NCBI GenBank assembly: GCA_002794705.1
Contig: PGTK01000002.1
Location: 124,001 to 188,000, forward strand
DNA length: 64,000 nt
Reading direction: 5' to 3'
Source: Candidatus Thermofonsia Clade 1 bacterium
GTDB taxonomy: Bacteria; Chloroflexota; Anaerolineae; Aggregatilineales; UBA2796
The position numbers were made by a program, and so were the translations under genes. How positions within the stretch are numbered: position 1 is the stretch's first letter; each line of letters begins with the position of its first letter. Under the pieces are notes generated by a model, which worked only from the letters and a program-made list of their open reading frames with translations, did no database searches and had not been told where the DNA came from. Positions 38,382-39,271 of this stretch are shown in pieces.

Positions 38382-38408
38382 AAACGGCTGAGCGTCGCTC
38401 AGCCGTTT
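38382..38408. terminator. Bidirectional hairpin between HD gene and rhodopsin
   Basis: AAACGGCTGAGC (38382-38393), GTC loop, GCTCAGCCGTTT (38397-38408): a perfect 12-bp stem. Short T runs at both ends serve both strands, so it stops the HD gene (+) and the rhodopsin gene (-). Confidence 0.85.
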
Positions 38409-38430: not shown

Positions 38431-39231
38431 CTAGTCGCCGGCAACTGCAGCCGCTGTGCCGACTTCCACAGCCTTCGGCTCAGCGTCCGACTTCGCCTTA
38501 GCAATCGCGTAGATCATCACGCCATAGCCGCACTTGGCTGCCACATCCGCGATGCAATAGCCGACCTGCACTGCCAACAGCACACCTGCAGTCATTTGAG
38601 CGCCGCCGCTGAGGATCGGGATCAAGTAGACAATTGGGTAGAAGCCCCATGTGGCGAACAGCAGCAAGCGGATGTTGCGCAGCAGCACACGCGCCTCGCC
38701 CGTCTCTTTCTGAATGGCTGGCCCAAGCCCGACAAACAGCTCATACAGGATGTACACGAAGGGCAGGGTCGAGAGGAAGCCCCACAGAGCGCGCGTGCCT
38801 GTGTCCGCAGCGATCTCGCCCGGATAGCCCAGGATGATCATCAGAGCAGCAGCAGCAGCAAGACGGAAGGTCAGCCAGCCCTTGCCCTTGGCAATGGTCA
38901 TGACCGCCACCAGCTCTGCCACTAGCAACGGAACGGTCAGCAGCCAGTCAATGTAGCGGTAGGCATCGTTGAACGGCTTGCCGCTGGCAACGTACGCACC
39001 TTCTTCATTGACGACGAAAGCCGCCTGCCAGCTCTCGAAGATGCGCAGATAATGATAGCCCGCAATAGCGACCACTAGTGCTGATAGCGTGATGGCATTG
39101 CGATACTTCGGCGCCACGTTGCCACGCGAAAGCACTAAGTAGATAAACGTGGCAAACATAGCAGCGAAGGTGAACGAGAAAGCATTGTAGACCAGACTGA
39201 ACTCACTTGCGGATAGTTGTGGTAGCGTCAT
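38431..39231 (-). CDS. Xanthorhodopsin-type light-driven proton pump
   Basis: A 266-residue seven-helix microbial rhodopsin in the cytoplasmic membrane. The helix C motif has Asp95, Thr99 and Glu106 (YRYIDWLLTVPLLVAE): the DTE set of outward proton pumps (acceptor Asp, donor Glu). Lys233 (ADVAAKCGYG) carries retinal. Leu103 is the green-absorbing tuning residue of proteorhodopsin. His60 pairs with Asp95 as in xanthorhodopsin. Gly151 in RALWGFLSTLPF corresponds to the fenestration Gly (Gly156 of xanthorhodopsin) that allows a carotenoid antenna. The ATG at 39231 is fixed by AGGAGA upstream; the open frame 5' of it is noncoding. No blh or crt genes are adjacent, so retinal must be made elsewhere or taken up. 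Confidence 0.96.
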   Translation of the reverse strand: MTLPQLSASEFSLVYNAFSFTFAAMFATFIYLVLSRGNVAPKYRNAITLSALVVAIAGYHYLRIFESWQAAFVVNEEGAYVASGKPFNDAYRYIDWLLTVPLLVAELVAVMTIAKGKGWLTFRLAAAAALMIILGYPGEIAADTGTRALWGFLSTLPFVYILYELFVGLGPAIQKETGEARVLLRNIRLLLFATWGFYPIVYLIPILSGGAQMTAGVLLAVQVGYCIADVAAKCGYGVMIYAIAKAKSDAEPKAVEVGTAAAVAGD

Positions 39232-39271
39232 GGCAGTCTCTCCTGAAGACTTGACGTATGACTTAGATTGC

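What the first reader, a model, noticed from the sequence alone, without database searches (positions are those of the whole stretch)
38431..39231. Xanthorhodopsin-type proton pump with a fenestration glycine, i.e. a probable carotenoid antenna site
Sequence shows the DTE triad (D95, T99, E106), retinal Lys233, Leu103 for green absorption, His60 in the GYHYLRIF motif and a long B-C loop as in xanthorhodopsin. W150-G151 aligns with the position where xanthorhodopsin and gloeobacter rhodopsin have the Gly that opens a window to the retinal ring. Knowledge: rhodopsins with this Gly can use hydroxylated carotenoids as light antennae. Inference: this bacterium may pump protons with antenna-assisted light capture, but no retinal or carotenoid genes lie in the window.
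Basis: partly seen in the sequence, partly recalled or inferred. Interest (0 to 1): 0.75.

Follow-up and report, generated by a model that had tools for sequence, protein, structure and literature searches.

The report
Chloroflexota xanthorhodopsin with carotenoid window
This is an ordinary light-driven proton pump of the xanthorhodopsin family from an uncultured Chloroflexota bacterium; it keeps the opening where a helper pigment could dock, and its closest relatives carry genes for a possible helper pigment but none of the two known kinds of gene for making the retinal that the pump needs.

Summary
In detail: 38431-39231 (minus strand) encodes a 266-aa xanthorhodopsin (XR) with every residue named, and Gly151 aligns with XR Gly156, Kin4B8 Gly153 and GR Gly178. 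The glycine is not distinctive: all 120 listed closest homologues have it. The protein sits in a Chloroflexota XR clade close to MAG CFX4; rhodopsins of 'Ca. Thermofonsia' are already in print. The antenna idea is plausible, but the glycine does not point to hydroxylated carotenoids: the helix-F pocket (Tyr-Leu-Ile-Leu) resembles keto-carotenoid-binding GR (Tyr-Leu-Met-Leu), not Kin4B8 (Tyr-Ala-Ser-Tyr). No genome is held for the window, so five closest genomes were tested. All five have CrtB, a fused lycopene cyclase, CruF and a P450 whose best solved relatives are plant carotenoid hydroxylases; four show the whole crtI-crtB-crtY-cruF-cruG-crtD order. That suggests a myxol-like glycosyl carotenoid. 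None has a CrtO-like hit, or a PF00487 or PF04116 match. None has Blh or an RPE65-family enzyme; 11 of 22 XR genomes of the order lack both, though RPE65 is enriched with XR (11/22 against 5/125). New member of a known kind, with a testable retinal-source question.

The parts
38431..39231 (-). xanthorhodopsin-type rhodopsin gene, 266 aa, stop codon included
39240..39244 (-). AGGAG, likely ribosome-binding site of the rhodopsin gene
   Evidence: read from the sequence
39052..39054 (-). codon of His60, partner of the counterion in XR-type pumps (role recalled)
38947..38949 (-). codon of Asp95, proton acceptor position
38914..38916 (-). codon of Glu106, proton donor position
38779..38784 (-). codons of Trp150-Gly151; Gly151 is the fenestration glycine (XR G156, Kin4B8 G153, GR G178)
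38611..38628 (-). codons of Tyr202 to Leu207, helix F side of the carotenoid site (Y202, L203, I206, L207)
   Evidence: positions from PMC12308411
38533..38535 (-). codon of Lys233, retinal attachment
38382..38408 (.). perfect 12-bp inverted repeat with a 3-base loop between the convergent rhodopsin and HD-domain genes, possible two-way terminator
   Evidence: read; the terminator scan did not report it

Best explanation
The gene encodes a retinal-based, light-driven outward proton pump of the xanthorhodopsin family in a Chloroflexota bacterium close to MAG CFX4. Light isomerises retinal on Lys233; the proton passes to Asp95 (with His60) and is replaced through Glu106. Shown: sequence, residues, predicted fold, clade. 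Inferred from the family: pumping, direction, green absorption. Gly151 leaves the side of the retinal ring open so that the ring of a carotenoid can dock. The likeliest natural ligand, inferred from five close genomes, is a glycosylated one-ring carotenoid of the myxol/salinixanthin scaffold with a plain or 3-hydroxylated beta ring, not lutein or zeaxanthin and probably not a 4-ketocarotenoid. Whether it binds and passes energy is untested. Retinal comes either from outside or from an enzyme that is neither Blh nor of the RPE65 family.
For: Family and residues. Clade and synteny. Carotenoid cluster of the closest genomes. Crt-linked P450 with plant carotenoid hydroxylases as best solved relatives. 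No CrtO-like, PF00487 or PF04116 match in five of five. No Blh or RPE65 in five of five. CruF and cyclase enriched in XR genomes.
Against: The pocket residues are GR-like, and GR needs a 4-keto ring, while the closest genomes have no known ketolase: the two lines disagree. Beta-carotene does not bind Kin4B8. In the five closest genomes the P450 is not beside the crt cluster, and its function is a guess from distant solved relatives; NCBIfam ranks other P450 models first, below their cut-offs. CruF, CruG and CrtD models are below their curated cut-offs, and HpnB outscores CruG. All five are draft genomes whose completeness the tool does not show. The window's own genome was not available.
Confidence: 0.6

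Rival explanations
1. The fenestration is used with a 4-keto carotenoid, as in XR and GR. The ketolase was missed, is of an unknown family, or the pigment comes from neighbours.
For: Helix-F quartet YLIL is closest to GR YLML, and the GR helix-E and helix-F motifs are kept. Six of 24 Chloroflexota XR genomes have a CrtO-like hit over 270 bits, one inside the crt cluster of G006, and their rhodopsins have the same kind of quartet.
Against: No CrtO-like hit and no PF00487 match in five of five closest genomes, while 3 of 5 control genomes have CrtO-like hits.
Confidence: 0.18
2. The open site is a structural feature only: the pump works with retinal alone and no antenna is used in this lineage.
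For: The glycine is inherited across the whole clade (120 of 120 listed homologues) whatever the carotenoid genes; the closest genomes lack known 3-hydroxylase (CrtZ) and ketolase families, and unmodified beta-carotene does not bind Kin4B8.
Against: Trp replaces the glycine in 4 of 80 other rhodopsin loci and G178W improves GR stability and pumping, so keeping an open site suggests use; carotenoid genes are enriched in XR genomes (CruF 20/22 against 39/125).
Confidence: 0.15
3. The gene gives an apoprotein that stays without chromophore in this lineage because no retinal is available.
For: No Blh or RPE65-family enzyme in five of five closest genomes; Rhodoluna lacicola needed added retinal (told in PMC7734400 and PMC5459899).
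Against: All functional residues are intact and the gene keeps its place beside the same neighbours in the close genomes; Aurantimicrobium minutum makes retinal without the known genes; RPE65-family enzymes are in 11 of 22 XR genomes of the same order.
Confidence: 0.07

Closest known systems
Xanthorhodopsin of Salinibacter ruber (PDB 3ddl)
   Different: Helix-F quartet YMMA against YLIL; the related control genomes G150 and G151 have Blh and a CrtO-like gene, the five closest genomes neither
Gloeobacter rhodopsin (PDB 6nwd)
   Same: Nearest helix-F quartet (YLML against YLIL); G178, S181, T182, F185, P226, I227 identical
   Different: 48-49% identity; Thr179 is Phe here
Kin4B8 xanthorhodopsin (PDB 7ytb, 8i2z)
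   Different: Polar Ser208 and Tyr209 are Ile206 and Leu207 here
Myxol-bound chloride pump NM-R3 (PDB 9jow)
   Same: A rhodopsin with bound myxol, the kind of pigment predicted for the closest genomes; entry title only
   Different: Chloride pump, 30% identity; no paper on this structure appeared
Rhodopsins of 'Ca. Thermofonsia' and Roseiflexus
   Same: Chloroflexota proton-pump rhodopsins reported without (Roseiflexus, Roseilinea) a carotenoid oxygenase (passages of PMC5826079 and PMC5459899); a P450 87% identical to that of G136 is labelled Thermofonsia Clade 1
   Different: Their sequences were not compared here by name

Membership tests
Xanthorhodopsin family of proton pumps | DTE motif, His partner, Asp and retinal Lys in helix G | tested here: met
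   H60, D95, T99, E106, D229, K233 aligned
Xanthorhodopsin family of proton pumps | Sequence and fold nearest to XR members, and place in the tree | tested here: met
Xanthorhodopsin family of proton pumps | Light-driven proton pumping | not testable with these tools
   needs expression
Carotenoid-binding rhodopsins | Gly at the fenestration position | tested here: met
   G151 = XR G156 = GR G178 = Kin4B8 G153
Carotenoid-binding rhodopsins | Bound carotenoid with energy transfer to retinal | not testable with these tools
   needs reconstitution and spectra
Hydroxy-xanthophyll binders of the Kin4B8 type | Polar residues at Kin4B8 positions 208 and 209 | tested here: not met
   Ile206 and Leu207 (positions)
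Keto-carotenoid binders of the XR/GR type | Hydrophobic residues at those positions, with the GR helix-E and helix-F motifs | tested here: met
   motifs from passages of PMC9151804
Keto-carotenoid binders of the XR/GR type | 4-ketolase in the host genome | tested here: inconclusive
   0 of 5 closest genomes have a CrtO-like hit or PF00487 match; own genome not held
Rhodopsin hosts with a known retinal pathway | Blh (PF15461) or RPE65-family (PF03055) enzyme | tested here: inconclusive
   0 of 5 closest genomes for each; own genome not held

The most novel reading that the evidence does not exclude
In this Chloroflexota clade the pump is loaded with retinal made by an enzyme of no known retinal-forming family, and its GR-like hydrophobic fenestration holds a glycosylated, 3-hydroxylated one-ring carotenoid of the myxol type. 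I saw no such pigment named for a xanthorhodopsin in the papers I read; myxol bound to a chloride pump is solved (9jow, title only).
Probability: 0.15. Interest if true: 0.75.

Novelty: new member of a known kind. Interest (0 to 1): 0.38.

Why it matters
The protein itself is one more xanthorhodopsin. Its use is as a test case: a tight group of five genomes has a conserved pump and a conserved carotenoid cluster but neither known family of retinal-forming enzyme, which sharpens the published open question of how rhodopsin bearers without blh get retinal (PMC7734400, PMC5459899). It also warns against reading the fenestration glycine alone as a sign of a hydroxylated-carotenoid antenna.

Tried and rejected
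Rejected: the fenestration glycine as a distinguishing feature (120 of 120 listed homologues). Rejected as a C50-cyclase pair that could feed retinal synthesis (the idea of PMC7734400): extra short lycopene-cyclase-domain genes found in G001 and G133-G136. In G001 it is a 133-aa protein behind ABC-transporter genes, with VPLEHA where the fused cyclase has VPIEEY; a fourth match of G001 was not listed and not looked at. Tested and not supported: DUF6992, in the crt cluster, as the missing retinal maker. It is near the cyclase in 15 of 20 XR genomes against 11 of 30 XR-less ones (p 0.01), but it occurs without XR, occurs in RPE65 genomes, and was not seen near the cyclase in G002, G006 and G022, which have neither known enzyme (the G022 contig is 4.5 kb). 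These 50 neighbourhoods are 20 of 22 XR genomes and 30 of the 50 XR-less genomes with a cyclase match; many are cut by contig ends. Tested: the crt-linked P450 as a retinal maker; it is in the crt neighbourhood as often without XR (8 of 30) as with it (3 of 20, p 0.49), so it looks like a carotenoid-tailoring enzyme. Dropped: the weak second rhodopsin hit of G001 (L110, 25 bits), whose 272-aa ORF does not look like a rhodopsin to me. My ORF filter lost two rhodopsin loci (L090, L106); I put G003 and G009 back by hand. The promoter and terminator scan gave one site of each kind, about what shuffles give. Fisher p-values ignore kinship of the genomes.

Papers: PMC12308411 abstract and outline and sections 1, 2.3 and the first of two parts of 2.1; PMC7734400 passages and one section; PMC5459899, PMC5826079, PMC9151804 and PMC13093654 passages only; all others are listings. 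Nine paper searches were answered. I noticed in their listings no paper that names an antenna pigment for a Chloroflexota xanthorhodopsin, but most subscription papers are not held, so I do not claim that it is unpublished.

Full report
What is there. The minus-strand ORF 38431-39231 is a 266-residue rhodopsin starting at the ATG at 39231 behind an AGGAG. Pfam scores it as Bac_rhodopsin at 1.7e-38; the best solved sequence is xanthorhodopsin 3ddl at 1.7e-87, before Kin4B8, Gloeobacter rhodopsin, psXR and the thermophilic rhodopsin 5azd. Upstream on the same strand is a PTPS-related membrane protein, downstream a convergent HD-domain gene. Fourteen query proteins (CrtI, CrtB, lycopene cyclase, DUF6992, CruF, CruG, CrtD, a P450, two RPE65, two Blh, two CrtO) gave no hit in the 64 kb.

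Which carotenoid fits. In PMC12308411 the ring pocket is lined on helix F by positions 204, 205, 208 and 209: Kin4B8 Y-A-S-Y, XR Y-M-M-A, GR Y-L-M-L, KR1 Y-M-T-D. S208A cuts zeaxanthin binding to 2%, and beta-carotene does not bind Kin4B8. The window has Y202-L203-I206-L207, nearest to GR. Of the GR motifs in PMC9151804 (passages), G178, S181, T182, F185, P226 and I227 are identical here; T179 is Phe and S221 is Thr, both as in XR. From the protein alone the pocket resembles those that hold 4-keto rings. YLIL is the commonest quartet of the listed homologues, 53 of 120.

Relatives. A scan of genome contigs found CFX4 at 89%. Window and CFX4 share the order rhodopsin, PTPS-related protein (64%), CTP synthase (91%), a threonine dehydratase-like gene (80%) and a roadblock-like gene (94%) (the last two names are my own labels). 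In the order around CFX4, 26 of 147 genomes have a Bac_rhodopsin match, 22 of them XR type by residues (G003 and G009). Rhodopsins of G133-G136 are 91-92% identical to the window's, that of CFX4 88%; the DNA around them matches the window at about 73-79%. The tree puts the window with P0002 and G134 (95/88) inside a group of Chloroflexota XRs (33 rows, 83/95). Rhodopsins of 'Ca. Thermofonsia' clades 1 and 2 were reported in 2018 (PMC5826079, passages).

Carotenoid genes of the closest genomes. CFX4 has one cluster: CrtI (600 bits), CrtB, a lycopene cyclase with two cyclase domains, DUF6992, an alpha/beta hydrolase, CruF (PF04240, 135 bits), a CruG-like glycosyltransferase and a CrtD-like desaturase (410 bits). 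The NCBIfam CruF, CruG and CrtD models are below their curated cut-offs, and the glycosyltransferase scores higher with HpnB than with CruG. The same order at 69-91% identity is seen in G134, G135 and G136; G133 shows the first six genes before its contig ends. Over the order, CruF occurs in 20 of 22 XR genomes against 39 of 125 others (p 1.4e-7), the cyclase domain in 20 of 22 against 50 of 125 (p 1e-5). The set suggests a one-ringed, 1'-hydroxylated, 3',4'-desaturated, glycosylated pigment (chemistry recalled, helped by the model names), the scaffold of myxol glycosides and salinixanthin. CrtO-like hits over 270 bits occur in 6 of 24 Chloroflexota rhodopsin genomes and 3 of 5 controls, in none of the five closest; PF00487 and PF04116, which hold CrtW and CrtZ (recalled), have no match in the five.

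The P450. A P450 beside crt genes in G003, G010 and G045 has orthologs in all five closest genomes, at 52-57% identity to the copies of G003 and G010, while eight other P450s of relatives have 27-37%. In the five it lies away from the crt cluster, and it is the only P450 found in G134 and G136. The best solved relatives of the CFX4 copy are LUTEIN DEFICIENT 5, carotene epsilon-monooxygenase and P450 120; a 12-sequence profile ranks LUTEIN DEFICIENT 5 first at 208 bits, P450 120 at 193 and the epsilon-monooxygenase at 189. NCBIfam offers only other P450 models, all below cut-off. It lies near crt genes in 11 of 50 neighbourhoods. I read it as a ring hydroxylase; this is an inference. A rhodopsin with bound myxol has been solved (9jow, title only).

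Retinal. Blh was found in 1 of 28 Chloroflexota rhodopsin genomes (G098, next to its XR gene) and 5 of 5 controls. RPE65-family enzymes are in 12 of 28 and in 4 of 5 controls, and in the order in 11 of 22 XR genomes against 5 of 125 others (p 1.8e-7), so they may be the retinal source where present. Eleven of 22 XR genomes have neither, all five closest among them. All are draft genomes; I asked for at least 75% completeness in the order searches, but the tool shows no figure. The gap was noted before for Roseiflexus and 'Ca. Roseilinea' (PMC5459899, passages), and Aurantimicrobium minutum makes retinal without either gene (PMC7734400). DUF6992, the short cyclase-like proteins and the P450 were tried as candidates; none stood up.

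Verdict. Observation confirmed; interpretation partly supported. A new member of a known kind, with intact pump residues and an intact carotenoid window. The pigment that fits and the source of retinal are open, and pocket residues and gene content of relatives point different ways on the first.

Noticed in passing
window 38530-38532 (Cys234) and homologues P0002-P0121: The residue after the retinal lysine is Cys in 93 of 120 listed homologues (25 Ala, 2 Val), while the five solved relatives have Ala or Pro.
   Followed up: no
L162:9660-10058 (G001); also L163, L165, L167: A lone 133-aa lycopene-cyclase-domain protein without the EE motif sits between ABC-transporter genes and a 761-aa protein in four of the five closest genomes.
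   Followed up: partly
L148:12623-13132 (CFX4) and other crt neighbourhoods: DUF6992 (PF22503), a small protein of unknown function, lies near the fused lycopene cyclase in 26 of 50 neighbourhoods.
   Followed up: partly
G098:C51:200887-202737 (L109, L128): The only Blh gene among 28 Chloroflexota rhodopsin genomes lies directly beside an XR gene; the same genome also has an RPE65-family enzyme.
   Followed up: no
L082/L107 (G090), L085/L108 (G005), L087/L109 (G098): Three genomes carry two rhodopsins, one XR type and one with an NDQ motif as in sodium pumps (meaning of NDQ recalled).
   Followed up: no
L002, L008: Two records look mislabelled: 'Pleurocapsa minor' and 'Thermoflexus hugenholtzii' carry rhodopsins inside the Chloroflexota XR group, L008 identical to L007, and the genome of L002 is held in the order of CFX4.
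   Followed up: no
crt neighbourhoods: The crt-linked P450 (11 neighbourhoods) and a close CrtO (5) never occur together in 50 neighbourhoods, as if 3-hydroxy and 4-keto ends were alternatives; too few to test.
   Followed up: no
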